Below, piece by piece: positions 8,014 through 54,108 of a stretch of 64,000 bases of DNA. The DNA is from Microbacterium limosum (lineage in GTDB: Bacteria; Actinomycetota; Actinomycetes; Actinomycetales; Microbacteriaceae): assembly GCF_036324365.1 (NCBI RefSeq), contig NZ_CP137080.1, forward strand, positions 806,001 through 870,000. Reading direction: 5' to 3'. The notes under the pieces were generated by a model, which saw nothing but the letters and a program-made list of their open reading frames with translations, had not been told where the DNA came from and ran no database searches. Every line of letters starts with the position of its first letter. The first letter of the stretch is position 1. A program made the position numbers and the translations under genes.

Positions 8014-13086
<5,073 letters not shown>

Positions 13087-13187
13087 ATCACCTTCCTAGG
13101 TGCTTGCGTCCACTGAGTGGTTCTCGATGTACGGTCGGGAACCGCATGACAATGACTTTTGTTGTGCAGACTGAAACATCAATAGTG
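13087..13187 (+). other. 23S-5S spacer with 3' half of the 23S processing stem
   Basis: Bases 13101-13134 are nearly the reverse complement of 9796-9829 in the upstream spacer: 29 of 34 positions are Watson-Crick pairs and three more can form G-U pairs. This is the long helix that encloses pre-23S rRNA and is cut by RNase III. Confidence 0.75.
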
Positions 13188-13304
13188 TTTCGGCGGCCAT
13201 AGCGAGAGGGAAACGCCCGGTCCCATTCCGAACCCGGAAGCTAAGCCTCTCAGCGCCGATGGTACTGCGGGGGGGACCCCGTGGGAGAGTAGGACACCGC
13301 CGGA
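13188..13304 (+). rRNA. rrf: 5S ribosomal RNA
   Basis: The sequence starts at about TTTCGGCGGCCATAGCG and ends at ACACCGCCGGAC, with the central block CCCGGTCCCATTCCGAACCC. The 5' and 3' ends pair as the terminal helix. Length is about 117 nt, normal for Actinobacteria. Confidence 0.95.
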
Positions 13305-13314
13305 CTTCTTTCGA

Positions 13315-30844: not shown

Positions 30845-30918
<74 letters not shown>

Positions 30919-30972
30919 CCGGTAGGGCTGTTGGCAGAACTGATTGCAAAACAGCTCGGCAAGGTTGGAGAA

Positions 30973-34600: not shown

Positions 34601-36996
34601 GGACCTCAGAGCTCCACCACGACTTCGGCGAAGTCCGCGCGGCGTTCGAGCTCATCGCAGAGTTCCAGCAGGACACCATCGGTCAACGTGAATGGTTCGA
34701 CTATCAGTCGATCCGGACTGAGCTTCGAGAACTCGATCTGGACAGCACGGTCGAATTCTGCATCGAGCAGCGCATACCTGCGTCGGACGTCCCGAAAGTC
34801 GTGGAACGCGCCCTGCTTCGAGCATGGGCCGACGAACACATTCGGACGGACACCCGCCTCCAACCCCTGCTCGCCGCTGATCGCGCGGCGCTCGTCGAAG
34901 AATTCCAGAACCTGGACCGCGAAGTCGTAGCTGCGGCCACGAGCGACATCATCCAGGCAGCGAACACGCGCCGCCCTGCCAATACCTCGTTGGGTGAGCC
35001 CGCCCTCATCCGAAGGGAGGGCATGAAGCAACGGCGTCACATGGCAGTGCGGAACCTGATCGCGCAAACCCGATCCGCGACACAGGCGATCAAACCGGTG
35101 TTCATGATGTCCCCGCTTGCCGTCTCCCAGTACCTACCTCACGACCTGAAGTTCGATGTGGTGATCTTTGACGAAGCCTCGCAGGTCACGCCCGGTGACT
35201 CCATCAACTGCATCTATCGCGGCAGGTCCTTCATTCTGGCGGGCGATGACCGACAACTGCCGCCGTCCCAGTTCTTCGAGCGAGTCATCGAGTCAGACGA
35301 TGTCGATGATCTCGAGTCTGATGTGAAGGACTTCACCTCGATCCTCGAGCTCGCCAAGTCTTCAGGAGCCTTCCGGAACCTCAGCCTGAGGTGGCACTAC
35401 CGGTCCCGCCACGAAGCCCTCATCGCGTTCTCGAACTATCGCTTCTACGAAGGCCACCTCATCACCTACCCCTCTGCGCAAGAGGAAGGCGCGGACGTGG
35501 GCGTCGAGTTCATCCATGTCGACGGCATGTACCGCCGCGGTGGAGGCGCAGACAACCCGAAGGAAGCGAAGGCCGTCGCCGAGCGGGTCATTCACCACTA
35601 CCGAACGCGCCCAGGGCTCTCGCTCGGCGTCGTCACATTCTCAGTCGCGCAGGCGGCCGCGGTCATCGCTGCCGTCGACGACGTACGCAACCAACACCGC
35701 GATCTCGACGCCCACTTCGACAAGAGTGACCGTCTCAACGGCTTCTTCGTGCGTTCGCTCGAGTCCGTCCAGGGCGACGAACGTGACGTGATCCTCTTCT
35801 CCATCGGGTACGGACCCGACGAAGCCGGGAAAATCTCGACCAACTTTGGAGTGCTCAACAAGGCCAAGGGGTGGCGGCGCCTCAACGTTGGAGTCACGCG
35901 TGCGAGGCAACGTATCGAGGTCGTCGCCTCCATGGAAGCCGGCGACATCCCGCCCTCCTCGAACGAAAACGTCGAAGCCCTCCGTGCATACCTCGACTTC
36001 GTCCGCCGAGGCATCACCACCCTTGGGACTCAAGCCTCCGCGACGGGCCTGATGCCTGATTCTCCGTTCGAGGAATCGGTGATCCGTGCCATCCAGTCCT
36101 GGGGATACGTTGTCGAGCCGCAGGTCGGAGCCGCCGGTTTCCGGATCGATATTGGAGTTCGTCACCCAGCCAAGCCCGGTTCGTTCGTGCTGGGCGTCGA
36201 ATGCGATGGCTATCAATATCACTCCGCACCCGCTGCGCGTGACCGAGACCGTCTCAGAGACCAAGTGCTCTCTGGACTCGGGTGGACACTCCACCGCATC
36301 TGGGGGACCGGGTGGTATCGAGACCGGATCCAGGAGGAGAGCCGCCTGCGCGCAGCCATCGAAGCAGCAGTCGCCGGCACCTCCTCGCGCACACGAACGT
36401 TCGCTATCGTGCGCCCCACGGTCGAAACGGCTGCGGCAGAAATTGACACTCCCTACGCATGGGCGGTCGACTACGTCGAAGCCGCCCCAGTCAAGTTGCC
36501 TCACTGGGTCGAGCCAGCCGAACCCGGCAACCACCTCCACCTGGTCGAGGCACTCGTAACGCTTGCCCAAACGGAGGGTCCCGTCCACCTCGACACGGTC
36601 AGTGAACGAATCCGCGAGTGGTGGTCGGTCGGGCGCGTCACATCCCGACTCAAGGACAACATCGACCGTGCGATCCTCAAAGCGGGCCTCGAACGGGACG
36701 GTGACTTCATCGACGTGCCCAACCGCCCCGTCTCGAAGGTTCGATCCCGGAATCAGAACCGCAAGCCCGAGCAAGTCCACCTCGACGAATTCGCGCTCGC
36801 AGCCGAGATGCTCGTTCGCGATGTCGGCGGAGCGTCGAGATCCGAAGTCATCGTCGCCATCGCACGTCAGTTCGGTTGGGGAAGGACGGGCGCAATCGTT
36901 GACGCGCGTCTCAACGCGGCTGTCGAGCAGGCTGTCGAGCGCGGCGTTCTCGTCCAGAACGGGGAGGCGCTCTCCAGCGCCCGTACGGCGCCCTGA
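31606..36996 (+). CDS. DUF4011-helicase-restriction endonuclease-DUF3320 defence protein
   Basis: This 1796-aa protein has a DUF4011 N-terminus (REGLVGLDRRSRLLRF, residues about 15-30). A superfamily 1 helicase/ATPase follows with Walker A GPPGTGKS near 303-310, the DEAS Walker B near 1189, GDDRQLPPSQ near 1212, WHYRSRHE near 1262, ESVQGDERD near 1386 and NVGVTRARQR near 1427. Next is a PD-(D/E)xK nuclease of the Vsr/DUF559/MTES_1575 type, with Asp1515 in FRIDIGV and Glu1532 in ECDGYQYH. A DUF3320 C-terminus covers about 1625-1790. Between Walker A and DEAS lie about 880 mostly helical residues. The same order, DUF4011-helicase-Vsr, was reported as the antiphage system Hhe. GGAGG stands 5 nt before the GTG start. 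The codons are less G+C rich than core genes, fitting transfer. Confidence 0.88.
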   Translation: MGTINETRAALKTWREGLVGLDRRSRLLRFRAPKTSSLRLDGPSPDAILELLRSGKLQSFVGDVVDPETGVARPARAGTFLHVPRVDTEIGPVVRTLMRRANEEFLDRGLSVLYVAFGMLKWKDVDGSEMASPIYLLPVELLPEGPRATPRIKGGEDDAVLNPALPLRLNEFGVTLPTYEDVDGLSLSEILDRYTSALSTAKDFKDWSLDPEVHLSTFSFAKEAMYKDLLDNEAAIAEHPVIRALANGDPTSQSDEFQFDPVDPVDIDEIAPPERTPLVLDADSSQRAAVAAALAGRSFVMDGPPGTGKSQTIANMIGALLHAGKSVLFVSEKIAALDVVKNRLKDSGLESYLLELHSHKTNRKDVANELLRTLDNVAQPPRAMSASTRTALEDRRRRLNSYALAMNEARSPLQASLHDILGELAGMVHVPVAPTPNRPPLQLSDDGRAALSDTLKRLERTWRPAAQGSTFLWRDVTDETSLESRLYSARTALEELEGTVQLNRGLAEAFELTAPRQTQTLIDLLALQHTNRPPYVNDGWLTTSDWSSIQTDRADLGSLVAAFHEAADKVMTLAGVDYESFPPELPPAPEPIPVRGAVDIAALTTSELRTTADAFEARESSLTSTVESVSNLARLIGMPEIVSFADTDRAVRIVQIHRDYPGIDASWFTASDLRAARDAASTLHHKSLALDHAENQASKLFSPTALAAPLRELEDRFTNLHTGIRKLSAAYRTDKKALGALLADAKQVKSGIARLSDAIAWSDAASEFDAAGAAYGAALGRWWQGRATNWDELTRFMAAAEEVVALTGDTVSPALKAYMAHTSADAAHVHVADTAREVIAAWRNDVAPQPALTGRPELLVEPVAASVSWLSAHVAPMRSAATRVESISRHSARDHTLAEAESIIAAVDVAREAVRALDASAEKMTRQFGGLFVSHRTDLAAVDSALEWASRVRDTVDGALTVAQVHALNASADTENLANILHKWESARDEIVRAFHADRTSELHHDFGEVRAAFELIAEFQQDTIGQREWFDYQSIRTELRELDLDSTVEFCIEQRIPASDVPKVVERALLRAWADEHIRTDTRLQPLLAADRAALVEEFQNLDREVVAAATSDIIQAANTRRPANTSLGEPALIRREGMKQRRHMAVRNLIAQTRSATQAIKPVFMMSPLAVSQYLPHDLKFDVVIFDEASQVTPGDSINCIYRGRSFILAGDDRQLPPSQFFERVIESDDVDDLESDVKDFTSILELAKSSGAFRNLSLRWHYRSRHEALIAFSNYRFYEGHLITYPSAQEEGADVGVEFIHVDGMYRRGGGADNPKEAKAVAERVIHHYRTRPGLSLGVVTFSVAQAAAVIAAVDDVRNQHRDLDAHFDKSDRLNGFFVRSLESVQGDERDVILFSIGYGPDEAGKISTNFGVLNKAKGWRRLNVGVTRARQRIEVVASMEAGDIPPSSNENVEALRAYLDFVRRGITTLGTQASATGLMPDSPFEESVIRAIQSWGYVVEPQVGAAGFRIDIGVRHPAKPGSFVLGVECDGYQYHSAPAARDRDRLRDQVLSGLGWTLHRIWGTGWYRDRIQEESRLRAAIEAAVAGTSSRTRTFAIVRPTVETAAAEIDTPYAWAVDYVEAAPVKLPHWVEPAEPGNHLHLVEALVTLAQTEGPVHLDTVSERIREWWSVGRVTSRLKDNIDRAILKAGLERDGDFIDVPNRPVSKVRSRNQNRKPEQVHLDEFALAAEMLVRDVGGASRSEVIVAIARQFGWGRTGAIVDARLNAAVEQAVERGVLVQNGEALSSARTAP

Positions 36997-38887: not shown

Positions 38888-39361
38888 GTGACCGCCTTCT
38901 GGTGAGGGGGTCGCGGGACGGGGCCTCGCTCACAAAACTCGTGGGTTACCGGGTGGAGATGGTCCGCCCGGCCTATCCGACATTTGTGGGAGGCCCCGTG
39001 TTCACTGAGCGTACGAGTGTTGGGCTCGATGTGCACGCCCGTTCTGTCGCAGCCGCGGCGATCGATGGCGTGACCGGCGAGCTGTTCCAGGCGAAGCTGC
39101 CGCCGGGTCATGACCGCATCCTGGGCGGTCCATCTGGCGCGACTGCTGCGTCTGGATGAGATCACACCAGTGACGGTGCCGACGGTCACCCAGGAGGCTG
39201 CCCGGGATCTGGTGCGTGCACGGGAGGACTGCCGAGGCGATCTGATGCGCGCCCGTCACCGGCTGAGCAAACTGCTGCTGCGGCACGGGATCGTCTACGA
39301 CGAGGGCAGAGCCTTCAACATCAGCCCGGAACTGTTTCCGGGGAAGAAGCACTTGACGTGA
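38888..39361 (+). mobile_element. IS110-family insertion sequence remnant
   Basis: The sequence carries pieces of one transposase plus a G/C-rich left flank (38888-39000) with the look of an IS110 end. The element is truncated, and the right end is lost against the TerC promoter region. It marks past transposition between the permease pair and the stress cluster. Confidence 0.65.
39001..39361 (+). pseudogene. IS110-family transposase, broken
   Basis: The first part, from GTG 39001, reads TERTSVGLDVHARSVAAAAI, the DEDD N-terminus of IS110 transposases with its first Asp. It then jumps frame at about 39115-39125 into HLARLLRLDEITPVTVPTV and AREDCRGDLMRARHRLSKLL, a segment normally about 110 residues further on. 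The C-terminal Ser-type half is missing. The frame change, internal deletion and truncation show it is dead. Confidence 0.8.
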
Positions 39362-41454: not shown

Positions 41455-41852
41455 TGAGCGTCGCCTGGTTTCCGCTCGCAGGTCCGCACCCGTCACCCCG
41501 ACCGGGCGCGCCAAGGCAGGCTAATCCCACCCGGGGGAGGGAGCACGCATGAGGTCGACCAGACCCTTGCCGCCGATCAAGAACTCCGACAGTTCACCCT
41601 TGCGAAATGTATATCTGGGGTCCATGATCTTGGCCAGAACGAGATTCGTCTCGCGGACTCGGCCGGTGGCCGGCCGGGCAGCGCGAGCCGATGCGCCGCA
41701 CGGCGGTTCGGCGACGGAGCTCTTCCAAGCGTTCGCGCTTCTGCACGGACATCGTCCAGAGTGGTCGACAGGATGGGGTCTTCACCTTTGACCGATGAAC
41801 AAACATCGGAAGTCGAGTCATAGCGACTCAGCGTGAATGGGGAGGTGGCGAG
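41455..41852 (+). other. Spacer upstream of the chaperone cluster
   Basis: About 400 bases carry no gene that I trust; an 80-codon frame at 41549-41791 lacks ribosome site and family. Near the end lies a 6-bp inverted repeat CCGATG/CATCGG (41792-41797, 41804-41809) and the possible HspR site described separately. It most likely contains the promoter of the cluster. Confidence 0.5.
41811..41832 (+). promoter_or_regulatory. HAIR-like HspR operator
   Basis: GAGT (41815-41818), 7 bases, then ACTC (41826-41829) keeps the spacing of the HspR-associated inverted repeat CTTGAGT-N7-ACTCAAG. Only the inner four bases of each arm match, so this is a partial hit. It lies just upstream of the hsp20 gene, where HspR control would be expected. 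Confidence 0.4.
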
Positions 41853-42213
41853 ATGGTGACCTCATATGCGGACCTGCGCATCTTTCAGCAGATGGATCCG
41901 CGCTCGATGTCGGTCGATCTGTCCCGAGAGGGCGACGAGTACGTCCCTGAGGCGAACCTGCCAGGCATCGACTCGGAGTCCATCGAGCTGGGTGGGCGGC
42001 CAGCTGCTCACCGTCCGCGCGGTGAGCGCCCCGTCCGCGACCACCGACGCGAAGTGGTTCACCGCCGCACGCCCCCACGGGCAATTCATGCGGCTGCTGG
42101 GACTGGCGCCCGGCATCGACAGCGACAGCGTCACCGCCAGCTGCGACCGGGGCGTTCTGTGGGTGGTGATGCCCATCGAGCAGCCCGCCGTCCGGAAGAT
42201 CCCCCTGGAATAG
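41853..42213 (+). pseudogene. Hsp20 small heat shock protein, frameshifted
   Basis: From ATG 41853 (GGGGAGG upstream) the frame encodes a normal Hsp20 start: SVDLSREGDEYVPEANLPGI. At about 41985-41997 it leaves the frame. The rest continues in the next frame as GGQLLTVRAVSA..., AKWFTAARPHGQFMRLLGLA and SVTASCDRGVLWVVMPI, ending at 42213. Together the pieces align with the intact Hsp20 at 51905, with roughly two bases lost before GGQLL. The IxI-type tail is short. It is broken as given; a sequencing error is possible. Confidence 0.75.
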
Positions 42214-42286
42214 CCCGCTTCCTGACTCTGGGCACTCAGTCCGCCCCCTGCGCCGATCCTGGCGCTCTTTGACGACCCATGAAACG

Positions 42287-42300
42287 TGTCACACGTGACA
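42287..42300 (+). promoter_or_regulatory. Palindrome upstream of dnaK
   Basis: TGTCAC-AC-GTGACA is a perfect 6+2+6 inverted repeat. It ends 17 nt before the dnaK ATG and just before AAAGGA. It could be an operator or an mRNA hairpin near the ribosome site. Confidence 0.4.
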
Positions 42301-42317
42301 AGAAAGGAACAACCATC

Positions 42318-44183
<1,866 letters not shown>

Positions 44184-44201
44184 CACGGAGGGAGGATCGC
44201 G

Positions 44202-44741
44202 ATGGTCGAGGAGCAGAACGAGGAAACCCGGACTGTGGACCTGGTGAACGACGACCTCACCGGGGTGTCCGCAGAGGAGATCCGCGCCGCGCAAGCGGCC
44301 GTCGCAGCCCAGTTGGAGACGGCCGAGGACCGCTGGCGCCGGGCGGCGGCGGACTACGACAACCTCCGCAAGCGGATGACGCGCGAAGTCGAGACCGCCC
44401 GCGAGCAGGAACGGCAGCGCACCGCGAGGGCGTTCCTGCCGGTCCTGGACGGACTGGACCGGGCACTGACCTTCGCAGTGAATTTCGACGAGAGCGTTCA
44501 CGGCGGCATGCAGGCCGTCCGGGCGCAAGCCGCTGACGCGCTGCGTGCCTTGGGGTACCCCGAGATCGTGGTGGACGGCGCAACGTACGATCCGCAACTG
44601 CATGAAGCGGTCTCCGTCGTCGAGGACGCCAGCGCCCCACCGCGGAGCGTTATCGCCGTCACCCGGCCCGGGTTCGGAACGCCCGAGCGGATGCTTCGAC
44701 CGGCTGCGGTCGTGGTCACCCGCAGGCCGGACGAGGAGTAG
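44202..44741 (+). CDS. grpE: Nucleotide exchange factor GrpE
   Basis: The 179-aa protein has a charged N-terminus, a coiled coil (AAQAAVAAQLETAEDRWRRA then YDNLRKRM), and the beta-rich head with YPEIVVDGATYDPQLHEAVS. The family fingerprint is present at normal length. GGAGGGAGG precedes the ATG. It exchanges ADP on the DnaK encoded just upstream. Confidence 0.93.
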   Translation: MVEEQNEETRTVDLVNDDLTGVSAEEIRAAQAAVAAQLETAEDRWRRAAADYDNLRKRMTREVETAREQERQRTARAFLPVLDGLDRALTFAVNFDESVHGGMQAVRAQAADALRALGYPEIVVDGATYDPQLHEAVSVVEDASAPPRSVIAVTRPGFGTPERMLRPAAVVVTRRPDEE

Positions 44742-44744
44742 ACG

Positions 44745-45632
44745 ATGGCGGAGGATCTCTACAGCGTGCTGGGGGTCTCCCGGTCGGCGGATCAGAAGGA
44801 GATCCGCCGCGCCTACCGGGAGAAGGCCCGCAAGTTCCACCCGGACGTCAACAAGACCCCGGGGGCGGAGGAGACCTTCAAACGGATCAGTGAAGCCCAC
44901 GATGTGCTTTCGGACCCGGAAACCCGCTCACAGTACGACCGGTTCGGTGAGAACTTCCGGCAGTACGCCGCCGCGGACGCGGCTCGCTCCTCCGAGCAGC
45001 CGCGTCGCAGCGGCGGCACCCGATACACGTGGAGCGGTGGCGGCGCCCAGAGCGTGAACTGGGAGGACCTCTTCGGGGGCGGCTTCGGCGGGTTCGGTCG
45101 CGGCGCCGACCACACCGCGGAGCTGGAAATCACCGTCGAGGAGGCCTACAAGGGCGGGCGGCGCACCGTGCAGGTCGCCTCCCCTTACGGCGGCGCGCAG
45201 GAGTACACCATCGACATCCCAGCGGGCGCTGTCGACGGGCAGCGGCTGCGGATCGCGGGCGCAGGCGGAGCGGGCGCCGACGGACAGGACGGGGACCTGC
45301 TGGTCACGCTGCGCGTGAAGGACAGCAAGCGGTACCGGCTCAGCGGCGCGGACATCGAGACGGACCTTCCCATCTCACCGTGGGAGGCGGCGCTGGGCGC
45401 GGATGTCAGCGTGCCCACCCCCGGCGGCCCGGTCACCGTGCACGTTCCGCCCGGCTCGTCCACTGGCAGGCGGCTCCGCCTGCGCGGGCAGGGGATGCCC
45501 CGCAGAGGACAGCCGGGAGACCTGTATGCGCGGGTGAAGGTCGTCGTTCCCCGCACTCTCAGCAAGAAGGAGAAGGAACTGTTCGAACAGCTCCGCGACG
45601 AATCGTCCTTTGATGCCAGGAGAGGATCATGA
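44745..45632 (+). CDS. J-protein of CbpA type (DnaJ without zinc finger)
   Basis: The 295-aa protein has a J domain (1-66) with HPD at residues 32-34, a short Gly-rich region (GGGFGGFGRGADH) and the two C-terminal beta domains (IPAGAVDGQRLRIAGAG, VHVPPGSSTGRRLRLRGQGM). There are no CxxCxGxG zinc repeats, so it is a class II J-protein like CbpA. The start is 3 bp after grpE and the stop overlaps the next gene. In this operon it serves as the DnaK co-chaperone. Confidence 0.92.
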   Translation: MAEDLYSVLGVSRSADQKEIRRAYREKARKFHPDVNKTPGAEETFKRISEAHDVLSDPETRSQYDRFGENFRQYAAADAARSSEQPRRSGGTRYTWSGGGAQSVNWEDLFGGGFGGFGRGADHTAELEITVEEAYKGGRRTVQVASPYGGAQEYTIDIPAGAVDGQRLRIAGAGGAGADGQDGDLLVTLRVKDSKRYRLSGADIETDLPISPWEAALGADVSVPTPGGPVTVHVPPGSSTGRRLRLRGQGMPRRGQPGDLYARVKVVVPRTLSKKEKELFEQLRDESSFDARRGS

Positions 45633-45940
45633 CCTCACATCACCTGCCCGTCCGTGTCGACCGGGCCGACCTGGCGGCCACCGCGGTGGCCGCAGGTATC
45701 CACCCGGATACGCTGCTGAAGTTCGTCGAGCTGGGGCTGGTCACCGCCCACGTCGACGCCAGCGGCCGGCTGTGGTTCGCCCGTACCGTCCCCGCCCGCG
45801 TGCACACCATCGTGCGTCTGCACTCTGATCTTGCCGTGAACTACGCCGGCATCGCACTCGTGCTCGACCTGCTCGCCCGCATTGAGCAGCTCGAGCAGCA
45901 CCGGACCATCCGACTTGAAGGAGACACCCCATGGACATGA
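45629..45940 (+). CDS. CbpM/MerR-like chaperone modulator
   Basis: The 103-aa protein has an N-terminal winged-helix of the MerR type ([20 protein letters not shown]) and a helical C-terminus [20 protein letters not shown], which is the CbpM core. CbpM inhibits CbpA in E. coli, and the related HspR represses heat-shock operons in Actinobacteria. It is smaller than typical HspR. The ATG overlaps the J-protein gene (ATGA), and its end overlaps clpB. It may be both regulator and J-protein partner. Confidence 0.8.
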
Positions 45941-48558
45941 ACTCGCTCACTCAGAAGTCGCAGGAAGCGCTCACCTCGGCCCAGAGCATCGCGGTCCTGG
46001 CCGGTCAGATCGAGACGGATGAGGAGCATCTCCTGCTCGCACTGCTTCAGCAGGAGGAGGGGCTGGTTCCCCGACTGCTGCAGACAGCTGGTGCTGACGT
46101 GGAAGCGGTACGCGCCGACGTCGAAGCGGAGATCGCCCGCAAGCCCAGCGTCTCCGGGTCCTCCCCGCAGACCGGTCAGGTGTACGTGAGCCGCAGCCTC
46201 ACCTCCACCCTGGAACGCGCAGAGCGGGAGGCGAAGCGGCTGAAAGACTCCTACATCTCCGTGGAGCACCTCGTTCTGGCCCTCGCCGACGACTCCTCCA
46301 ACCGTGCCGCGTCCCGCATTCTGCGCGGGCACGGAGTCACCAGGGAGAGCTTCCTCAGCGCGCTCACCAAGATCCGCGGCAACCAGCACGTCAACTCCGC
46401 CACCCCCGAACAGACGTACGAGGCGCTGGAGAAGTACGGTCGCGACTTGGTCGCCGACGCCCGGCTCGGCAAGCTCGACCCGGTCATCGGGCGTGACGCG
46501 GAGATCCGCCGGGTCATCCAGATCCTCTCCCGCAAGACCAAGAACAACCCCGTCCTCATCGGCGAGCCCGGTGTCGGAAAGACCGCCATCGTGGAAGGCC
46601 TCGCCCAGCGGATCCTGCGCGAGGATGTGCCCGAGGGCCTCCGCGACAAGACCGTGTTCTCGCTGGACCTGTCGGCCCTGGTCGCCGGCGCGAAGTACCG
46701 GGGCGAGTTCGAAGAGCGGATGAAGGCGGTCCTGGCGGAGGTGAAAGCTGCGGAGGGACGCATTCTGCTGTTCATCGACGAGCTGCACACCCTGGTGGGG
46801 GCGGGAGCGACCGAAGGGGCGATGGACGCCGGCAACATGCTCAAACCGATGCTCGCCCGCGGCGAGCTGCACCTCATCGGTGCCACCACCCTCGATGAGT
46901 ACCGTAAGCACATCGAGAAGGACGCTGCCCTGGAACGCCGGTTCCAGACGGTGATGGTCGAAGAACCCGACGTGGAGGACGCGATCTCCATCCTCCGCGG
47001 TCTCCGCGAACGGCTGGAAGTCTTCCACGGTGTCCGCATCCAGGACAGCGCCCTGGTCGCTGCCGCTGTGCTGTCGCATCGGTACATCTCCGACCGGTTC
47101 CTGCCCGACAAGGCCATCGACCTCATCGACGAAGCCTGCGCGCGACTGCGAACCGAGATCGACTCGATGCCTGCCGAGCTGGACGAGCTGACCCGGCGGG
47201 TGACCCGCCTGGAGATCGAGGAGGCGGCGCTGTCGAAGGAGACCGACACTGCCAGCAAGAACCGGCTGGAGGAGCTGCGCCGGGAACTGACCGACCTGAA
47301 GGCGGAGGCGGACTCCAAGCGCGCCCAGTGGGAGGCGGAGCGTCAAGCGATCCGCAAGGTCCAGGAGCTGCGCAGTGAGCTGGAGCGGCTGCGGCGGGAG
47401 GCGGAGGAGGCTGAGCGCTCCTACGACCTCAATCGTGCCGCTGAACTGCGGTACGGGGCTCTCGCAGACGCGGAGCGTCGCCTGCACGCCGAGGAGGAGC
47501 GTCTCACCTCCAAACAAGGCCGACAGCGGCTACTGCGGGAGGTGGTCACCGAGGACGAGATCGCCGAGATCGTCGCAGCGTGGACGGGGATCCCCGTGGC
47601 CCGGCTGCAGGAGGGTGAGCGCAACAAGATCCTCACCCTCGACGCCACCCTCAAGGAGCGAGTGGTCGGTCAGGATGAGGCCATCACCCTCGTCAGCGAT
47701 GCGATTATCCGTGCCCGCTCCGGCATCCGCGACCCGCGCCGACCCATCGGCTCGTTCATCTTCCTCGGCCCCACCGGAGTGGGAAAGACCGAACTGGCCA
47801 AAGCGCTCGCGCAGGCACTGTTCGACAGCGAGTCGGCGATGGTCCGGCTGGACATGAGCGAATACCAGGAACGTCACACCGTCAGCCGGCTCGTCGGTGC
47901 ACCTCCCGGGTATGTCGGGTACGACGAGGGCGGGCAGCTGACCGAGGCGGTGCGCCGCCACCCGTACAGCGTGGTCCTCTTCGACGAGATCGAAAAAGCG
48001 CACCCGGACGTGTTCAACACGCTGCTGCAGGTCCTCGACGACGGCCGCATCACCGACAGCCAGGGACGCACCGTCGACTTCCGCAACACCATCGTCATCA
48101 TGACCTCCAACATCGGCGCTCACCATCTGTTGGGCTCCGATGGCGGCGCGATCCCCGACGACGTGCGAAACAGTGTGCTCGGTGAGCTGCGCGCCCACTT
48201 CCGCCCCGAGTTCCTCAACCGGGTGGATGACATCGTGGTGTTCTCGCCGCTGGGTCGCGAACAGATCCAGGACATTGTGGAGCTGCAGTTCACCGACCTG
48301 CGCTCCCGGCTGGCCGAGCGTCAGATCCGCATCGAGCTGACGCCCGCAGCACGCCAGCTCATCGCCGACCGCGGCTACGACCCCGTATACGGTGCGCGTC
48401 CGCTGCGACGCTACATCAGCCACGAGATCGAGACCCGGCTGGGTCGTGCGCTGCTGAGCGGGCAGGTAATGGACGGGTCGACGGTCACGCTGGATGTGCA
48501 GGACGGCGACCTCGTCTTCAACATCGCAGCGCCCGTCGAAGAGGAGGACGCGGTGTGA
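45931..48558 (+). CDS. clpB: ClpB disaggregase
   Basis: The 875-aa protein has an N-domain (about 1-145), AAA1 with Walker A GEPGVGKT at 211, a coiled-coil middle domain (about 405-525), AAA2 with GPTGVGKT at 613 and a small C-terminal subdomain. [17 protein letters not shown] and [15 protein letters not shown] are the Walker B regions. It works with DnaK to pull apart aggregates. ClpP-binding IGF loops are not evident, so a disaggregase and not a protease partner is favoured. It starts inside the previous gene and its end overlaps the thioredoxin start. Confidence 0.94.
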
Positions 48559-49007
48559 GCGCAATTGTGACCTGCCCCAACTGCGGCAAGAAGAACCGTG
48601 TCCCCGCCGCCGCGTCCGGGTACCCGCGGTGCGGCGTCTGCAAAAGCACCGTGCCGTGGATCGTCGACGCGGGTGACGCGGACTTCGCCGAAGTCGTCGA
48701 GAAGGCACCGCAAGTGGTGCTCGTGGACTTGTGGGCGACCTGGTGCGGACCGTGCCGGATGGTCAGCCCCGCCCTCGAGAAGGTCGCCACGGAACGTGCC
48801 GGCAAGCTCAAGCTGGTGAAAGTGGACGTGGACGCCGCACCGGAGACGGCCCGCAAGTTCTCCGTCCAGGCGGTGCCGACCCTGCTCATCCTCTACCAAG
48901 GGAACGTGCTCTCCCGCCAATCCGGTGCCGCCCCGCCGGACGTGCTGCTGCGCTGGGTGGACGAGGCGCTGCAGAAGAAGGCAGATTCGGCCGGCGGTGC
49001 CCCATGA
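48555..49007 (+). CDS. Thioredoxin with N-terminal zinc ribbon (Trx2-like)
   Basis: The 150-aa protein starts with a CxxC-x15-CxxC zinc ribbon (Cys7, Cys10, Cys26, Cys29), then a thioredoxin domain with WCGPC (Cys64, Cys67), cis-proline segment AVPTLL and helix WVDEAL. This is the Trx2 (TrxC) arrangement, in which the zinc site tunes the redox potential and senses oxidation. GTG overlaps clpB by 4 bp. It is embedded in the chaperone operon, suggesting repair of oxidised proteins. Confidence 0.92.
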
Positions 49008-49254
49008 GATACGTCGACCCACACGTCCCGCTCATCCGCCCGGTCCGTCCGGGTCATGTGAGGACTGCGTGGCGGCCGGCACGCCCTGGCTGCACCTGCG
49101 GATGTGCCGCACCTGCGGGAAGGTCGGGTGCTGCGACTCCTCCCCGATGCGCCACGCCCGCGCCCACGTGCTTGCCTCCGGGCATCCCATCGTCCGTTCA
49201 CTGGAACCGGGTGAGGACTGGAGCTGGTGCTACGTAGACGAAGCGTACCTATGA
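48997..49254 (+). CDS. UBP-type zinc-finger protein, 85 aa
   Basis: A GTG at 48997, 11 bp inside the thioredoxin gene, starts an 85-aa protein with CEDC (Cys21, Cys24), MCRTCGKVGCC (Cys37, 40, 45, 46), RHARAHVLASGHPIV (His53, 57, 63) and WSWC. This is the pattern of the ubiquitin-hydrolase-type zinc finger (ZnF-UBP). In eukaryotes it binds the free C-terminus of ubiquitin; actinobacteria have no general ubiquitin system, so the target is unknown. The stop overlaps the next start by 3-4 bp. Confidence 0.85.
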   Translation: MPHEIRRPTRPAHPPGPSGSCEDCVAAGTPWLHLRMCRTCGKVGCCDSSPMRHARAHVLASGHPIVRSLEPGEDWSWCYVDEAYL

Positions 49255-50963
49255 GCGATCTGCTCGCCACCGGCCGCAGTGAAGCCTCCCAGGCTGAGAC
49301 GCCTGACACCATCGGCGCTTTCCCGCGGCTCAGTGATGAGCAAATCGCCGTGCTGCTCGAACGAGGCACGCATCGCGCGCTCACCGACGGGGAGGTTCTC
49401 ATCAGGCCCGGCGAACACCCCTCGTCCCTCTACGTTGTCCTGGAAGGGCACCTGCTCACCGCAGACACCGAACCTGCGGCAGACCCGCGTCACTCCGATA
49501 AGCCGTTGGAGGTCGGGGTGCACGGCCACGGCCGGTTCGTGGGAGACGTCGGGCTGCTGGAAGGACAGCCGTCTTTCGTGTTCGTCTCCGCCATCGGCGC
49601 CGCCGAAGTGGTGGAGGTGCCCGTCGATGAGCTGGAGGCCATCGTCACCTCGGACCCGCTGTTGGGCGAGATCATCCTGCGGGCCTACCTCATCCGCCGC
49701 TCCCTGGCCATCGGAGCGGGAGCGGGCCTGCGGATCGTCGGCTCCTGCTTCTCCCCGCAGACCCGGGATCTGCTGGACTTCATCGCACGAAACCGGCTGC
49801 CCCACCGGCTGGTGGACCTGGACGAGGACGAGAAGGCGGAGCGGCTGGTCCGTCAGCTCGGCGCCACCGTCGCCGACTTCCCGCTGGTGATCCTCGGCGG
49901 CTCACGCACCGTCCTGAGCGCCACCCCGGCACGGCTTGCCGAAGAGTTGGGGATGCGCCCGCCCGCCCCGCCGGCCACCTGCGATGTCGTCGTGGTCGGC
50001 GCTGGGCCGGCTGGTCTTGCCGCGGCAGTGTACGCGGCCTCCGACGGGTTGTCGGTGTACCTGTGCGACGCGGTTGCCACCGGCGGGCAGGCGGGAACGT
50101 CAGCGAAGATCGAGAACTACCTGGGGTTTCCTGCCGGGATCTCCGGCGCTGAGCTCGCCGACCGCAGCCTCCTGCAAGTGCGCAAGTTCGGCGCCACGTT
50201 GGACATCCCGTCCACGGTCCAGGAGGTCGTGGAGGATGAGGATCGCTTCCGGGTGATCTTCGAAGATGGCAGGGAGGTCACCTCAGATGTGGTGGTCCTT
50301 GCCACCGGGGTGCGATACCGCTCGCTTCCCGCCGCGGGGCTGGACCGGTTCCAGACCTCGAACGTGTTCTACGCGGCAACAGCGCAGGAAGCGCGGATGT
50401 GCGTGGACACACCTGTCGCCGTCGTCGGCGGCGGCAACTCCGCCGGCCAGGCCGCGCTGTTCCTTGCCCGCACGTCCTCCCGTGTGCACCTTGTGGTCCG
50501 CGCGGCGGACCTGGGAGCGGGGATGTCCAGATACCTGGTGGACCAGATCCAACATCACCCCCGTATCAAGGTGCTGCTGTCCTCTGAGGTCGTGGAAGCA
50601 CACGGCGGCAACCGTTTGGAAGCGGTCACGGTCCGTCACGGTGACGTGCTGGAGAAGCTCCGCGTGGGGCACGTGTTCGTCTTCGTCGGCGCCGCTCCGG
50701 CGACGACGGGATTGAAGGTCGATGTGGCACGCGATCCCGACGGGTACATCCTCACCGGCGCGGAGGCGGAGCTGGCCGGCGTGCGCACGGAAGGAAGTCC
50801 CCGCTTCTCGCTGGAGACCACCCTTCCCGGGGTCTTCGCTATCGGCGATGTGCGGCACGGGTCTGTGAAGCGAATGACCTCGGCCGTAGGTGAGGGCGCC
50901 AGTGCGGTCCGGCAGATCCACGAGTACCTGAACGAGGGTCGTCACAGTCGAGTGTGCGCATGA
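49251..50963 (+). CDS. cNMP-binding domain fused to thioredoxin-reductase-like flavoprotein
   Basis: The 570-aa protein has a cyclic-nucleotide-binding fold (about 20-150), a glutaredoxin-like region (160-235, GSCFSPQT with one Cys only) and a TrxR-like flavoprotein: FAD motif VGAGPAG (249-255), VATGGQAG, NADPH motif GGGNSA (393-398) and GDVRHGSVKR. The CxxC disulfide of true thioredoxin reductase is replaced by an AATA-type segment near 374-378, so it may not reduce thioredoxin directly. I placed the start at ATG 49251, overlapping the zinc-finger gene. It may be a ligand-gated oxidoreductase (inference). Confidence 0.87.
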   Translation: MSDLLATGRSEASQAETPDTIGAFPRLSDEQIAVLLERGTHRALTDGEVLIRPGEHPSSLYVVLEGHLLTADTEPAADPRHSDKPLEVGVHGHGRFVGDVGLLEGQPSFVFVSAIGAAEVVEVPVDELEAIVTSDPLLGEIILRAYLIRRSLAIGAGAGLRIVGSCFSPQTRDLLDFIARNRLPHRLVDLDEDEKAERLVRQLGATVADFPLVILGGSRTVLSATPARLAEELGMRPPAPPATCDVVVVGAGPAGLAAAVYAASDGLSVYLCDAVATGGQAGTSAKIENYLGFPAGISGAELADRSLLQVRKFGATLDIPSTVQEVVEDEDRFRVIFEDGREVTSDVVVLATGVRYRSLPAAGLDRFQTSNVFYAATAQEARMCVDTPVAVVGGGNSAGQAALFLARTSSRVHLVVRAADLGAGMSRYLVDQIQHHPRIKVLLSSEVVEAHGGNRLEAVTVRHGDVLEKLRVGHVFVFVGAAPATTGLKVDVARDPDGYILTGAEAELAGVRTEGSPRFSLETTLPGVFAIGDVRHGSVKRMTSAVGEGASAVRQIHEYLNEGRHSRVCA

Positions 50964-51862
50964 GCTCCGACATCCAGAGACACCTGACGCCGCACGCCGC
51001 CCCGAACCCGGCAGCCCTGGGAGAACCCGCGGATCCTCCGGGTGCCCAGGCGGGCGTGGCGGGCGAGATCCGCTCGACGTTGCGTCGGATGAGGTGGTTT
51101 CGCCGCATGCCGGTGTTGCACATCGCCGAGGAACGCGGCGAGGGTCCGACAGTGCTGCTGCTGCACGGTATCGCCTCCTCGTCGGTGACGTTTCACCACG
51201 TGATCCCGCTGCTCGAGCGCACCCACCGGTGCATCGCCATCGACCTGCTCGGCTTCGGCGAGTCGCCGGCGCCGGAGTGGGCCGATTACACCCTGGCCGA
51301 CCATGTCGCCGCTATCGAGCGGACGGTCGCCTCGTTGCGGCTGCGGGAGCCGTTCACTGTGGTCGGGCATTCAATGGGCGCCCTCATCGGTGCCCGGTAC
51401 GCCGCCCGGCGGCAAAAGCGAGTCGCGAAGCTCGTGATGGTCAGCCCACCTATCTATCTCGCACCCCATGAAATCGGGGACGTCATCGAGCGAGTGCGGA
51501 TGGACTTCTACCTGCGGCTCTACGAGCATCTCCGCACGAACCGGGAGTTCACCCTCCGGCATGCTGCGCTGGTACAGCGGCTGCTGCCCATCCCCAAAGC
51601 TGTCGATATCACTGAACGCAACTGGGAGCCATTCATCAAGTCGTTGCAGCACTCCATCGAGTCGCAGACCACCCTCAGCGACATCGCCCATGTCAAAGCC
51701 CCCATCGACGTCATCATGGGCGACCTAGACGAGTTCCGCTCCGAAGCCGTCCTGCGCATCGTGGAGCGGATGAAGGGGGTCACCGTCCGGCGGGTGCGGG
51801 CGACGAACCACCTCATCGGCAAGCGCCTCGCGCGAGTCGTCGCCGAGGCGGTGACAGCATGA
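50960..51862 (+). CDS. Alpha/beta hydrolase
   Basis: The 300-aa protein has about 50 residues of poorly conserved N-terminus, the oxyanion segment LLLHGIASSS, the nucleophile elbow GHSMG with Ser138, and a late Asp (MGDLDEF) and His (ATNHLIG) that complete the triad. The substrate cannot be predicted. The ATG overlaps the flavoprotein stop (ATGA), so translation is coupled. Its place at the end of the run suggests a stress function. Confidence 0.85.
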   Translation: MSSDIQRHLTPHAAPNPAALGEPADPPGAQAGVAGEIRSTLRRMRWFRRMPVLHIAEERGEGPTVLLLHGIASSSVTFHHVIPLLERTHRCIAIDLLGFGESPAPEWADYTLADHVAAIERTVASLRLREPFTVVGHSMGALIGARYAARRQKRVAKLVMVSPPIYLAPHEIGDVIERVRMDFYLRLYEHLRTNREFTLRHAALVQRLLPIPKAVDITERNWEPFIKSLQHSIESQTTLSDIAHVKAPIDVIMGDLDEFRSEAVLRIVERMKGVTVRRVRATNHLIGKRLARVVAEAVTA

Positions 51863-51904
51863 CGATGACCCGAGGACTCACATACGGAAAGGAAATGATT
51901 CATC

Positions 51905-52348
51905 ATGGCAATGTCGTTGGATCCTTTCAGCGGGCTCGACCGCCTCGCGTCTGGCCTGCTTCAGTCCCGTCCGGGACCGCGTGTGATGCCGGTCGACCTG
52001 TACCGTGACGGTGACCGCTACATCCTCAGCGCCGACATGCCCGGCGTGGACCCCGGCTCGGTGGACATCGACGTGGACGGTCAGCTGCTGACCATCCGCG
52101 CCCAGCGCACGGCCGCCCGCGCTGAAGGCGCCAAGTGGCTCGTGCAGGAGCGACCGGCGGGCACCTACCTCCGCCAGTTCAGCATCGGTGAGGGTGTGGA
52201 CTCGGCGAACATCTCCGCCTCGTATGACAACGGCGTGCTGAGCCTGGTCATCCCGGTCAGCGAGAAGGCCAAGCCGCGCAAGATCAAGGTCCTGAGCCAG
52301 AACTCGGGGCAGGAGCAAGACGCCGACCAGCCGACGCTCGCGAAGTAG
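51905..52348 (+). CDS. Hsp20 small heat shock protein
   Basis: The 147-aa protein is a full alpha-crystallin domain: VDLYRDGDRYILSADMPGVD, GQLLTIRAQRT, RQFSIGEGVD and ASYDNGVLSLVIPVSE, ending in KPRKIKVLS, an IxV-type tail. GGAAAGGAAA lies upstream of the ATG. It is a holdase that keeps unfolded proteins ready for DnaK/ClpB, and is the intact counterpart of the broken copy at the front of the cluster. Confidence 0.93.
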   Translation: MAMSLDPFSGLDRLASGLLQSRPGPRVMPVDLYRDGDRYILSADMPGVDPGSVDIDVDGQLLTIRAQRTAARAEGAKWLVQERPAGTYLRQFSIGEGVDSANISASYDNGVLSLVIPVSEKAKPRKIKVLSQNSGQEQDADQPTLAK

Positions 52349-52642
52349 CAAGCATCGCTTCCGTCCACTCATGCGTGTACGTAGCCACTCCCCAGCCGGG
52401 GAGAGCCGGTCGAAGAGCGGCTCCTCATCTGTCAGGAGCGTGCCACAGGTGCGGCCCTCTGTAGTGAAAATCGGCTGCACGCCTCCCATGGACGGGCTAC
52501 CGCGCCAGACCGCGAGGAGCGTCTCGCTCGCGCACGCGCTGGAATTCCGTCGTCTCGCAGAGGACGGACCAGAGGGGGTGTGGGCACCTGTGCTGTCCGC
52601 ACCCCCTTGCCCCATCCCGCATTCCAGTCAAAGGAGTTCACC
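52349..52642 (+). other. Spacer before the stress protein gene
   Basis: No gene is convincing here; a 91-codon frame at 52371-52646 looks random. A short G/C hairpin (CCCCAGCCGGGG region near 52391) could end the chaperone transcript. AAAGGAG at 52630-52636 is the ribosome site of the next gene. Confidence 0.45.
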
Positions 52643-53170
52643 GTGAGCACCACCGACACGCCCCGCAACCAGCCCTCGCAGCAAGCTGCCGAGGAGTTCG
52701 AGTACACCGCCGACCCGCGCTGGAAGCAGGCCATCGCTGAGTACTCCGATTACGCCACCGCGCAGGCCGCGGTCGACCGTCTCTCTGACGCCGGTTTCGC
52801 AGTCGAACGTGTCGCCATCGTCGGCTTCGACGTCCGCGTCGTCGAGCAGGTGCTCGGCCGGTTGACCAAGGGGAAAGCTGCGCTGCGCGGCGCTGGGGTC
52901 GGCGCGTGGTTCGGCCTGCTCATCGGTTTGCTTTTCGCCCTGTTCGCACCAGGATTCGGCTGGCTGGCCATCGTCGCGATCTCGGTGATCGCCGGTGCGG
53001 TGTGGGGCGCCGCGCTCGATTTCCTCGCGCACCTCGCCACCGGCGGGCGACGCGATTTCGATTCTGTGGAGACTCTCGAGGCAGACCGGTACGAGGTTCA
53101 GGTCGAAGCGCCGTTCGCGGCCGAAGCCGCCCGCCTTCTCGCAAGCAATCCTGCCCGCCCTATCGCCTGA
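52643..53170 (+). CDS. General stress protein with glycine-rich hydrophobic hairpin
   Basis: The 175-aa protein has a soluble N-terminus (YSDYATAQAAVDRLSDAGFA, then VAIVGFDVRVVEQV), a hydrophobic double segment (GVGAWFGLLIGLLFALFAPG and LAIVAISVIAGAVWGAALDF) and a C-terminal strand region (EADRYEVQVEAPFAAEAARL). Proteins of this outline in Actinobacteria are called general stress proteins of the YflT type. GTG with AAGGAG upstream sets the start. Confidence 0.75.
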   Translation: MSTTDTPRNQPSQQAAEEFEYTADPRWKQAIAEYSDYATAQAAVDRLSDAGFAVERVAIVGFDVRVVEQVLGRLTKGKAALRGAGVGAWFGLLIGLLFALFAPGFGWLAIVAISVIAGAVWGAALDFLAHLATGGRRDFDSVETLEADRYEVQVEAPFAAEAARLLASNPARPIA

Positions 53171-53544: not shown

Positions 53545-54108
53545 ATGTCATATCGAGTCGGCTACTTCGTCGGGAGTCTTTCCTCCACATCCATCAACCG
53601 CATCCTCGCGAAGGCTGTGATCCGTGTGGCCCCCGATGATCTGGAGTTCACCGAGATCCCGATCCGGGATCTGCCGCTGTACAGCCAGGATTACGACGCC
53701 GACTTCCCACCGGAGGCCAGGGCTCTGAAGGATGCGATCGCCGCCGCCGATGCGGTGCTGTTCGTCACGCCCGAGTACAACCGGTCGATTCCGGGAGCGC
53801 TGAAGAACGCCATCGACTGGGCGTCACGCCCCTGGGGGCAGAACTCGTTCGATCACATCCCGGCCGCGGTGATCGGCGCCTCCATCGGGCAGATCGGTAC
53901 GGCCGTGGCGCAGCAGAGCCTCCGCGGGGTTCTCAGCTTCTGCAACGCGCGGCAGATGACTGCGCCCGAGGCATACATCCATTTCTCGGCGGATGTCTTC
54001 GGTGAGGACGGATCGGTCAGCAACGCCGACACCGAGCAGTTCCTCCGCACCTTCATGAGCGAGTTCCGCGATCACGTGCAGCGGGTGCTCACCGTGCTTC
54101 CGCGGTAG
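53545..54108 (+). CDS. NADPH-dependent FMN reductase
   Basis: The 187-aa flavodoxin-fold protein has the FMN phosphate loop GSLSSTSINRILAKA, the VTPEYNRSIPGALKNAIDW flavin-binding segment and IGASIGQIGTAVAQ. Members reduce FMN, quinones or chromate. The gene lies at the edge of the accessory region. Its regulator next door is broken, so expression may now be constitutive. Confidence 0.9.
   Translation: MSYRVGYFVGSLSSTSINRILAKAVIRVAPDDLEFTEIPIRDLPLYSQDYDADFPPEARALKDAIAAADAVLFVTPEYNRSIPGALKNAIDWASRPWGQNSFDHIPAAVIGASIGQIGTAVAQQSLRGVLSFCNARQMTAPEAYIHFSADVFGEDGSVSNADTEQFLRTFMSEFRDHVQRVLTVLPR

What the first reader, a model, noticed from the sequence alone, without database searches (positions are those of the whole stretch)
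41853..52348. Complete disaggregation and redox-repair operon on an accessory region
dnaK, grpE, a zinc-less J-protein, a cbpM-like gene, clpB, thioredoxin, a UBP zinc finger, a cNMP/TrxR-like flavoprotein, a hydrolase and two hsp20 genes lie in one block on the same strand; from the J-protein gene to the hydrolase each overlaps the next. The block lies in lower-G+C DNA beside a broken IS and broken genes. This is a self-sufficient proteostasis cassette, similar in idea to the transmissible stress-tolerance loci of Proteobacteria but with other parts, so it may be an independent, little-described mobile system.
Basis: partly seen in the sequence, partly recalled or inferred. Interest (0 to 1): 0.8.

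Follow-up and report, generated by a model that had tools for sequence, protein, structure and literature searches.

The report
Mobile protein-repair gene cassette in actinobacteria
A block of about ten genes for rescuing heat-damaged, clumped proteins has jumped recently between distantly related actinobacteria, much like the known heat-resistance islands of Gram-negative bacteria but built from a different disaggregation machine.

Summary
The block is real and accessory: a tight operon of dnaK, grpE, zinc-less J-protein, CbpM/HspR-like gene, clpB, thioredoxin, UBP zinc finger, flavoprotein and hydrolase, then hsp20 and a YflT stress gene. Two corrections: the first hsp20 is frameshifted, and the "thioredoxin reductase-like" flavoprotein lacks the CxxC of thioredoxin reductases (19 of 19 homologs printed). 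7.5-10.2 kb of it is 93-95% identical in 12 other genomes (eight named genera, three orders). Cassette ClpB is more alike than housekeeping ClpB in 78 of 78 genome pairs (fourfold sites 88-98% against 42-68%), so transfer was recent. Thirteen copies have 12 different left flanks. No cassette gene follows the same tRNA-Pro in 18 of 18 sister genomes read (12.8-16.4 kb each), and the genome has two other dnaK operons. In Microbacterium esteraromaticum it shares a contig with conjugation genes and a large serine recombinase; relatives (DnaK and ClpB 73-79% identical) sit on Rhodococcus, Nocardia and Streptomyces plasmids. [quoted passage not shown] Ten searches of an open-access library found no description. 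Phenotype is untested.

The parts
30845..30920 (+). tRNA-Pro (GGG), conserved left anchor; what follows it varies among relatives
   Evidence: ARAGORN; Rfam; matched in 18 of 18 relatives; five downstream regions listed
38902..39361 (+). remnants of an IS110-type transposase
   Evidence: PF01548, E 2.5e-4, under cut-off; rest by eye
41712..41852 (+). leader region shared with other copies (left edge of high identity at 41712, weaker from 41598 in two loci)
   Evidence: blastn
41853..42213 (+). first hsp20, frameshifted remnant
42318..44183 (+). dnaK, 621 aa
   Evidence: TIGR02350 955.7 bits (cut-off 822.6); 97.9-99.0% identical in 12 of 12 other loci, 55-59% to the two other DnaK of the genome
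44202..44741 (+). grpE
   Evidence: PF01025 E 4e-32
44745..45632 (+). CbpA-like J-protein without zinc domain, no cysteine
   Evidence: PF00226 and PF01556 only; 0 Cys
45629..45940 (+). CbpM/HspR-like MerR_2 protein, probable J-protein modulator
   Evidence: PF13591
45931..48558 (+). clpB with N domain, 875 aa
   Evidence: TIGR03346 1345.9 bits (cut-off 1232.1); Clp_N; tree
48555..49007 (+). thioredoxin 2-type (zinc ribbon plus WCGPC)
   Evidence: TIGR01068 over cut-off; PF21352 just under its cut-off; WCGPC read
48997..49254 (+). UBP-type zinc finger protein
   Evidence: PF02148 E 7e-13
49227..50963 (+). cNMP-binding plus TrxR-fold flavoprotein without CxxC (ATG start probably 49251)
50954..51862 (+). 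alpha/beta hydrolase
   Evidence: PF00561
51905..52348 (+). second hsp20, intact
   Evidence: PF00011 E 1e-20; 84.7-89.2% in the 7 other loci with a full-length match
52580..53170 (+). YflT-domain stress protein, right end of the conserved unit
   Evidence: PF11181 E 7e-19; homolog at the same place in 8 of 12 loci

Best explanation
This is a horizontally transferred accessory cassette that carries a whole, self-matched Hsp70-Hsp100 disaggregation machine. Shown: gene content and tight overlapping order; recent spread across three orders of Actinomycetes; different genomic contexts; in one genome a shared contig with conjugation genes and a large serine recombinase; and carriage of more diverged forms on plasmids. 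Inferred: under heat or oxidant stress the small Hsp coats denatured proteins, the J-protein recruits the cassette DnaK to aggregates with GrpE as exchange factor, DnaK switches on its partner ClpB, which threads polypeptides out of aggregates, and thioredoxin reduces wrong disulfides; the MerR-like protein tunes the J-protein, as CbpM does for CbpA. Bringing DnaK and ClpB together avoids dependence on a host Hsp70 that may fit badly. In Microbacteriaceae the cassette also brings an N-domain-bearing ClpB into cells whose own ClpB lacks that domain. The cassette does not move by itself; it is cargo of integrative and conjugative elements and plasmids, later pinned and trimmed by insertion sequences.
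For: Families and operon. About 10.1 kb 93.7-95.0% identical to the window in 6 of the 12 loci from other genomes, shorter stretches (7.5-9.7 kb) at 92.9-94.4% in the other 6. ClpB, 13 genomes: cassette nt identity 94.8-98.6%, fourfold sites 87.6-97.6%; housekeeping 64-87% and 42-68%; cassette higher in 78 of 78 pairs (open frames were taken stop to stop, so some housekeeping rows carry extra upstream residues). Tree on the part from the first ATPase domain on: accessory ClpB 23 rows against housekeeping 13 rows, one split with 100/100 support. Orders Micrococcales, Actinomycetales, Propionibacteriales. Sporadic: 1 (own) of 316 scored family genomes has a near-identical copy, next best by score 74% identity (82 of the 398 drawn were not scored). 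12 distinct left flanks among 13 copies, with two pairs sharing part of a flank. No cassette gene after tRNA-Pro in 18 of 18. In G460 (M. esteraromaticum) the contig holds a TraG/VirD4-type coupling protein, Prim-Pol, M23 and (just under cut-off) ParB proteins and a 564-aa large serine recombinase. Two genomes of different families (L042, L044) share the same break of the hydrolase gene into a recombinase fragment that is 65% identical over 84 residues to that recombinase. Plasmid relatives keep dnaK-grpE-J-CbpM-clpB, and three of four go on with trx and flavoprotein, two of them with UBP. Native ClpB of the 8 Microbacteriaceae carriers matches the ClpB model only from position 140-147. In Rhodococcus opacus R7 a region with DnaK, CbpA, GrpE and thioredoxin genes was up 2.3-3.7 fold on o-xylene (PMC7434839, passages).
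Against: No phenotype was measured. I saw no transposase, integrase or transfer gene inside the conserved unit; no terminal inverted repeat beyond chance was found at the ends of L038, and no target duplication was found. No PLSDB plasmid carries the near-identical form (0 of 72,556 records cover 80% of the query). The flavoprotein lacks the thioredoxin reductase cysteines, so no recognisable reductase for the thioredoxin is in the cassette. The hydrolase is cut in 3 of 12 loci (L042, L044, and L043 at a contig end) and not covered in L047; hsp20b is missing in L045, hsp20b and YflT in L042 and L044, so those genes are not needed for spread. The HspR-box-like site at 41812 is no better than shuffled sequence.
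Confidence: 0.8

Rival explanations
1. The near-identity across genera is an assembly or contamination artefact rather than transfer.
For: Most copies are in draft genomes and several lie at or near contig ends (L037, L038, L039, L043, L047). One is a metagenome bin.
Against: The window copy is in a single-contig 2.79 Mb genome; the Actinomyces copy is in a 3.3 Mb contig, those of M. ihumii and Pseudoclavibacter in 0.58 and 1.47 Mb contigs. The copies differ from each other by 1.4-5.2% in clpB and have 12 different left flanks.
Confidence: 0.03
2. It is a vertically inherited second chaperone operon of Microbacteriaceae lost in most lineages.
For: More diverged cassettes occur in at least 6 other family genomes.
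Against: Fourfold-site identity 88-98% across orders against 42-68% for housekeeping ClpB; tree discordant with species; context differs in nearly every genome.
Confidence: 0.03
3. The cassette serves mainly solvent, metal or other chemical-stress tolerance, or simply chaperone dosage, and not survival of lethal heat.
For: Induction of a like region by o-xylene in R. opacus R7 (passages); neighbours include TerC in the window and, by eye, P-type ATPases in M. esteraromaticum; the flavoprotein part has no obvious heat role.
Against: sHsp plus DnaK-ClpB is the classical machine of heat tolerance (recalled; PMC8129007 passages on ClpB and thermotolerance); YflT is named a heat-induced stress domain in Pfam.
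Confidence: 0.25
4. [quoted passage not shown]
For: Same idea: sHsp, Hsp100, thioredoxin on mobile DNA; the Nocardia plasmid form also has M48 and trypsin-like proteases, like the HtpX-like orf15 and DegP of tLST (passages).
Against: ClpG and ClpK models score 786 and 784 bits against cut-offs of 1900, ClpB over its cut-off; no YfdX, HdeD, FtsH or KefB among the Pfam hits of the unit; dnaK, grpE, cbpA and cbpM are not in the list of tLST1 genes in the passages read.
Confidence: 0.03

Closest known systems
[quoted passage not shown]
   Same: Accessory, mobile, combines small Hsp, an Hsp100 disaggregase and thioredoxin; xenologs of core genes; proteases in some forms
   Different: Disaggregase is ClpB with its own DnaK-GrpE-J-CbpM set instead of stand-alone ClpG/ClpK; no YfdX, HdeD, FtsH, KefB found in the unit; other phylum (PMC8290217, passages)
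dnaK-grpE-J-CbpM-clpB-trx-UBP-flavoprotein block on Rhodococcus plasmids pDK2 (NZ_CP118329) and PD04 unnamed1 (NZ_CP142144)
   Same: Same gene order, DnaK 79%, ClpB 77% identical
   Different: No match to the hydrolase in the stretches read; in pDK2 hsp20 and general-stress genes are placed elsewhere; linear plasmid backbone
Nocardia farcinica HB204 plasmid block (NZ_CP133581)
   Same: hsp20 x2, general stress gene, dnaK-grpE-J-CbpM-clpB
   Different: clpB is followed by M48 and trypsin-like proteases instead of thioredoxin-UBP-flavoprotein
Plasmid-borne ClpL of Listeria (pLM58)
   Same: Hsp100 on a mobile element tied to heat resistance (PMC5663981, search listing only)
   Different: Single gene, other Hsp100 class, no Hsp70 set (recalled)
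E. coli cbpA-cbpM with DnaK and ClpB
   Same: Zinc-less J-protein followed by a small MerR-like modulator (recalled; families)
   Different: In E. coli these are scattered core genes, not one mobile operon (recalled)

Membership tests
tLST | ClpG/ClpK-type disaggregase | tested here: not met
   NF033607 786 and NF033606 784 bits, cut-offs 1900
tLST | small Hsp20 with the disaggregase | tested here: met
   one intact and one broken hsp20
tLST | YfdX, HdeD, KefB, DegP, FtsH cargo | tested here: not met
   none among the Pfam hits of the unit; some like proteins near a plasmid relative
tLST | horizontal spread on mobile DNA | tested here: met
tLST | raises heat and chlorine survival | not testable with these tools
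   no experiment
ClpB-DnaK bichaperone disaggregase | ClpB over the equivalog cut-off with N, D1, lid and D2 domains | tested here: met
   TIGR03346 1345.9 over 1232.1; Clp_N, AAA, AAA_lid_9, AAA_2, D2-small
ClpB-DnaK bichaperone disaggregase | DnaK, GrpE and J-protein partners | tested here: met
ClpB-DnaK bichaperone disaggregase | the two halves work together and resolve aggregates | not testable with these tools
   no assay
CbpM chaperone modulator | NCBIfam NF007617 cut-off 138 bits | tested here: not met
   36.0 bits; PLSDB records name four plasmid homologs CbpM; two of these tested are also under the cut-off
HspR repressor | NCBIfam NF047375 cut-off 105 bits | tested here: not met
   38.3 bits; the two HspR of the genome score 123 and 125
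Thioredoxin reductase | redox-active CxxC in the NADPH domain | tested here: not met
   A-A-T plus a non-Cys residue in the window and in 19 of 19 homologs printed; aligned to C-A-V-C of 5uwy
Integrative and conjugative element (the window copy) | integrase and conjugation genes beside the cassette | tested here: inconclusive
   none noticed among the ORFs of 36-58 kb read or those scanned; no dedicated search was run
Integrative and conjugative element (copy in M. esteraromaticum) | coupling protein plus integrase | tested here: met
   PF02534, PF12696 and PF00239/PF07508/PF13408; 10 proteins scanned, no relaxase among them, none searched for
Composite transposon or unit transposon (the cassette) | terminal inverted repeats or flanking identical IS | tested here: inconclusive
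   no inverted repeat over chance at the ends in L038; different IS in different copies, by eye

The most novel reading that the evidence does not exclude
Actinobacteria have their own undescribed family of mobile stress-tolerance islands, evolved apart from tLST, built around a complete and self-matched DnaK-ClpB bichaperone. It spreads between orders as cargo of integrative conjugative elements and plasmids, and can raise survival under heat, oxidant or solvent stress in any host, because it brings its own Hsp70 for its Hsp100.
Probability: 0.55. Interest if true: 0.75.

Novelty: new variant of a known kind. Interest (0 to 1): 0.62.

Why it matters
Mobile heat- and chlorine-tolerance islands of the tLST type are known mainly from beta- and gamma-Proteobacteria (PMC8290217, start of abstract). 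A second, separate solution in a Gram-positive phylum would show that whole protein-repair machines are traded between distant bacteria, and would let one test whether Hsp70-Hsp100 partner matching limits such transfer. Carriers include genera found in food and on people (recalled, not looked up), so it may matter for persistence after heat or sanitiser treatment.

Tried and rejected
tRNA-Pro as attachment site in the window: no copy of 14 bases or more of it elsewhere in the 64 kb, although 3 of 18 relatives have a second 31-46 base copy downstream. HspR box (recalled consensus): one site with 4 mismatches at 41812, but five shuffled windows give 6-11 such sites each, so not evidence; GAGT-N7-ACTC is kept in 10 of 12 other loci, but these are near-identical DNA. 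CIRCE (recalled consensus): none in the window. Inverted repeats at the unit's ends: none over chance. A left end motif shared by 4 of 12 loci is not in the window. Viral contigs: best ClpB identity 60% among the 80 loci kept of a capped list, so no phage carriage of this form seen. Names 'DprA-like' and 'recombinase C-terminus' that I gave to fragments left of the unit in my notes: recall only; Pfam gave only helix-turn-helix domains for the one and nothing for the two DprA-like pieces. Phylum-wide CbpM profile search: 195 of 296 genomes match at 1e-6, but only 5 (own included) at E 6.2e-21 or better and the rest at 4e-13 or weaker, the range in which the own genome's two HspR also fall (8e-9, 3e-8); of the 4 others, 3 have a J gene and clpB next to it, 1 has a J gene and thioredoxin but no clpB in the stretch. 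A first ClpB comparison was wrong because minus-strand loci were not turned; replaced. The first ClpB tree missed the four plasmid rows, put right. Structure prediction was not run.
Full report
OBSERVATION. The block 41853-53170 on the + strand holds, in order, a broken hsp20, dnaK, grpE, a zinc-less J-protein, a small MerR_2 protein, clpB, a Trx2-type thioredoxin, a UBP zinc finger, a cNMP-binding flavoprotein, an alpha/beta hydrolase, an intact hsp20 and a YflT stress gene. Gaps are 18 and 3 bases after dnaK and grpE; from the J gene to the hydrolase all six junctions overlap by 1-11 bases with the starts used (with the likely ATG at 49251 the 1-base overlap becomes 4). G+C is 0.67 against 0.72-0.73 for the DNA on either side of the low-G+C stretch.

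WHAT THE PARTS ARE. ClpB is over its equivalog cut-off and has the N domain; ClpG and ClpK models score far below theirs. DnaK is over its cut-off, 97.9-99.0% identical to the other near-identical copies and 76.5-79.2% to the four plasmid relatives, but only 55-59% to the two other DnaK proteins of its own genome. The J-protein has J and C-terminal domains, no zinc domain and no cysteine. The MerR_2 protein is below the cut-offs of both CbpM and HspR, while the two HspR proteins of the genome are over theirs; I call it CbpM-like from its place after a CbpA-like gene and the names of its plasmid homologs. The flavoprotein aligns with solved thioredoxin reductases, but their C-x-x-C is A-A-T-A here, and no homolog printed has the two cysteines at that site (19 of 19; two partial matches were not printed). 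It is therefore not a thioredoxin reductase by that criterion, and the 'redox-repair' label rests on the thioredoxin.

IS IT ACCESSORY? Two further dnaK operons exist in this genome (dnaK, J, hspR, grpE by eye). With the flavoprotein as query, 2 of 58 genomes (own included) have a copy over 90% identical; the next best is a 50% paralog in the own genome, then 48%; no cassette gene but the flavoprotein matches in the 18 kb round that paralog. With the 9.6 kb DNA as query, 398 family genomes were drawn, 316 scored and 82 left out by the tool; only the own genome has a near-identical copy and the next best by score is 74% (single pieces up to 81%). M. esteraromaticum, a known carrier, is not in that table. 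At least six other family genomes carry diverged cassettes. In the phylum 5 of 296 genomes, own included, have a strong CbpM-like match; in 3 of the 4 others a J gene and clpB lie next to it. Sister genomes: der, a NUDIX gene and tRNA-Pro are in the same order. Of 22 other same-genus genomes searched I fetched 18; in all 18 the tRNA-Pro is there, and no dnaK, clpB, flavoprotein, hydrolase or YflT match (over 40% identity and 40% of length) follows in the 12.8-16.4 kb read. One gene just outside the cassette, the FMN reductase at 53545, has a 61% match in G014. The cassette starts 10.9 kb after the tRNA in the window, so this reading covers only its start; but one search shows no close copy anywhere in those genomes. 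Three of the 18 have a second copy of 31-46 bases of the tRNA end further down, so the place looks like an integration hot spot in the genus, although the window itself has no such repeat.

IS IT TRANSFERRED? A scan of named genome contigs found 12 loci: Microbacterium (M. paulum, M. esteraromaticum, M. ihumii, sp. T2.11-28), a Microbacteriaceae isolate, Microcella, Brevibacterium casei, Actinomyces provencensis, Brachybacterium nesterenkovii, Piscicoccus intestinalis, Pseudoclavibacter helvolus, and Enemella dayhoffiae (cut at a contig end). The five looked up belong to the orders Micrococcales, Actinomycetales and Propionibacteriales. Identity to the window over the block is 92.9-95.0% and ends sharply; between the other copies the main blocks printed for five reference loci are mostly 94.5-98%. 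For 13 genomes I compared cassette ClpB with housekeeping ClpB: fourfold-degenerate sites 87.6-97.6% identical for the cassette, 42-68% for the housekeeping gene; nucleotide identity higher for the cassette in 78 of 78 pairs (frames were taken stop to stop, which may lower some housekeeping values a little). The tree puts all 23 accessory ClpB (13 near-identical, 6 diverged, 4 plasmid) on one side of a 100/100 branch and all 13 housekeeping ClpB on the other; inside the near-identical clade M. esteraromaticum pairs with Pseudoclavibacter next to Enemella. Vertical descent does not explain this.

HOW DOES IT MOVE? Left flanks differ in 12 of 13 copies: L036 and L037 share theirs; L041/L043 and L046/L047 share only part, in opposite orientation. 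Insertion sequences of several kinds, named by eye, abut it. In M. esteraromaticum the 82.7 kb contig has, downstream of the cassette, Prim-Pol, ParB-like, M23 and coupling (TraG/VirD4) proteins and then a large serine recombinase of 564 aa: an integrative and conjugative element by its parts; I did not search for a relaxase. In this copy and in the Piscicoccus copy the hydrolase gene breaks at the same base into a fragment of a large serine recombinase, 65% identical to that one. Four loci share a left end with helix-turn-helix coding sequence, and six loci a right end just after YflT, giving an ancestral unit of about 12.2 kb in L038. No inverted repeats beyond chance are at these ends. Relatives with DnaK and ClpB 73-79% identical sit on two linear Rhodococcus plasmids, a linear Streptomyces plasmid and a mobilizable Nocardia farcinica plasmid; general-stress and hsp20 genes lie around those of Nocardia and Rhodococcus DK17, and in Nocardia two protease genes follow clpB. 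My reading: a cargo cassette carried by plasmids and integrative conjugative elements, later fixed by insertion sequences.

HOW DOES IT WORK? From established knowledge of the families (recalled; PMC8129007 passages on ClpB), small Hsp, DnaK-J-GrpE and ClpB together disaggregate and refold proteins. Having DnaK and ClpB in one operon removes the need for the host Hsp70 to fit. All 8 Microbacteriaceae carriers (family of Microcella and Pseudoclavibacter recalled) have a housekeeping ClpB that matches the model only from position 140-147, while the cassette ClpB has the N domain and the 5 other carriers have full-length housekeeping ClpB; in this family the cassette thus adds something the host ClpB lacks. 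In Rhodococcus opacus R7 a region with DnaK, CbpA, GrpE and thioredoxin genes rises 2.3-3.7 fold on o-xylene (PMC7434839, passages); whether it is this cassette I could not check. Which stress matters is open.

KNOWN OR NEW? tLST of Proteobacteria is the closest known kind (PMC8290217, 12 of 21 passages; a word search of PMC8407380 for five words gave nothing). It shares the idea but fails on ClpG and most other cargo. Ten paper searches and a word search of the cheese-rind transfer paper (PMC5526665: no 'chaperone', 'heat shock', 'ClpB' or 'DnaK' in the main text) gave no description of this cassette; the library is open-access only. I file it as a new variant of a known kind, mobile stress-tolerance islands.

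Noticed in passing
L113:3805-14687 (own genome about 1121804-1132686): A second extra dnaK-grpE-dnaJ-hspR operon with an antiporter gene (PF00999) lies between two IS30-type copies (name by eye; HTH_38 and rve by Pfam) in opposite orientation that are identical over 1158 of 1158 bases; it looks like a composite transposon holding a housekeeping-type dnaK region. A near-perfect HspR box (1 mismatch to the recalled consensus) precedes its dnaK.
   Followed up: partly
L101-L109 (housekeeping clpB of eight Microbacteriaceae genomes): Housekeeping ClpB of all 8 Microbacteriaceae genomes looked at lacks the N domain, while the 5 other carriers have it.
   Followed up: partly
window 49227-50963 and L114:8451-10112: A flavoprotein family with cNMP-binding and thioredoxin-reductase-fold domains, named thioredoxin-disulfide reductase in some records, lacks the CxxC in all 19 homologs printed.
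   Followed up: partly
window 30845-30920: Downstream of this tRNA-Pro the gene content differs among the five relatives listed, and 3 of 18 have a second copy of the tRNA end: probably an integration hot spot of the genus.
   Followed up: partly
window 31606-36996: A 1796-aa helicase-like protein with a C-terminal nuclease-like region in low-G+C DNA right after the tRNA; might be a defence gene (by eye, no search done).
   Followed up: no
window 8014-13305: The G+C dip at 7-13.5 kb is an rRNA operon (16S, 23S, 5S), not an island.
   Followed up: yes
L118, L119, L132-L134 (M. esteraromaticum contig): The contig with conjugation genes also carries what look like two P-type ATPases; its serine recombinase lies next to what looks like the oligoribonuclease gene (both by eye).
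   Followed up: partly
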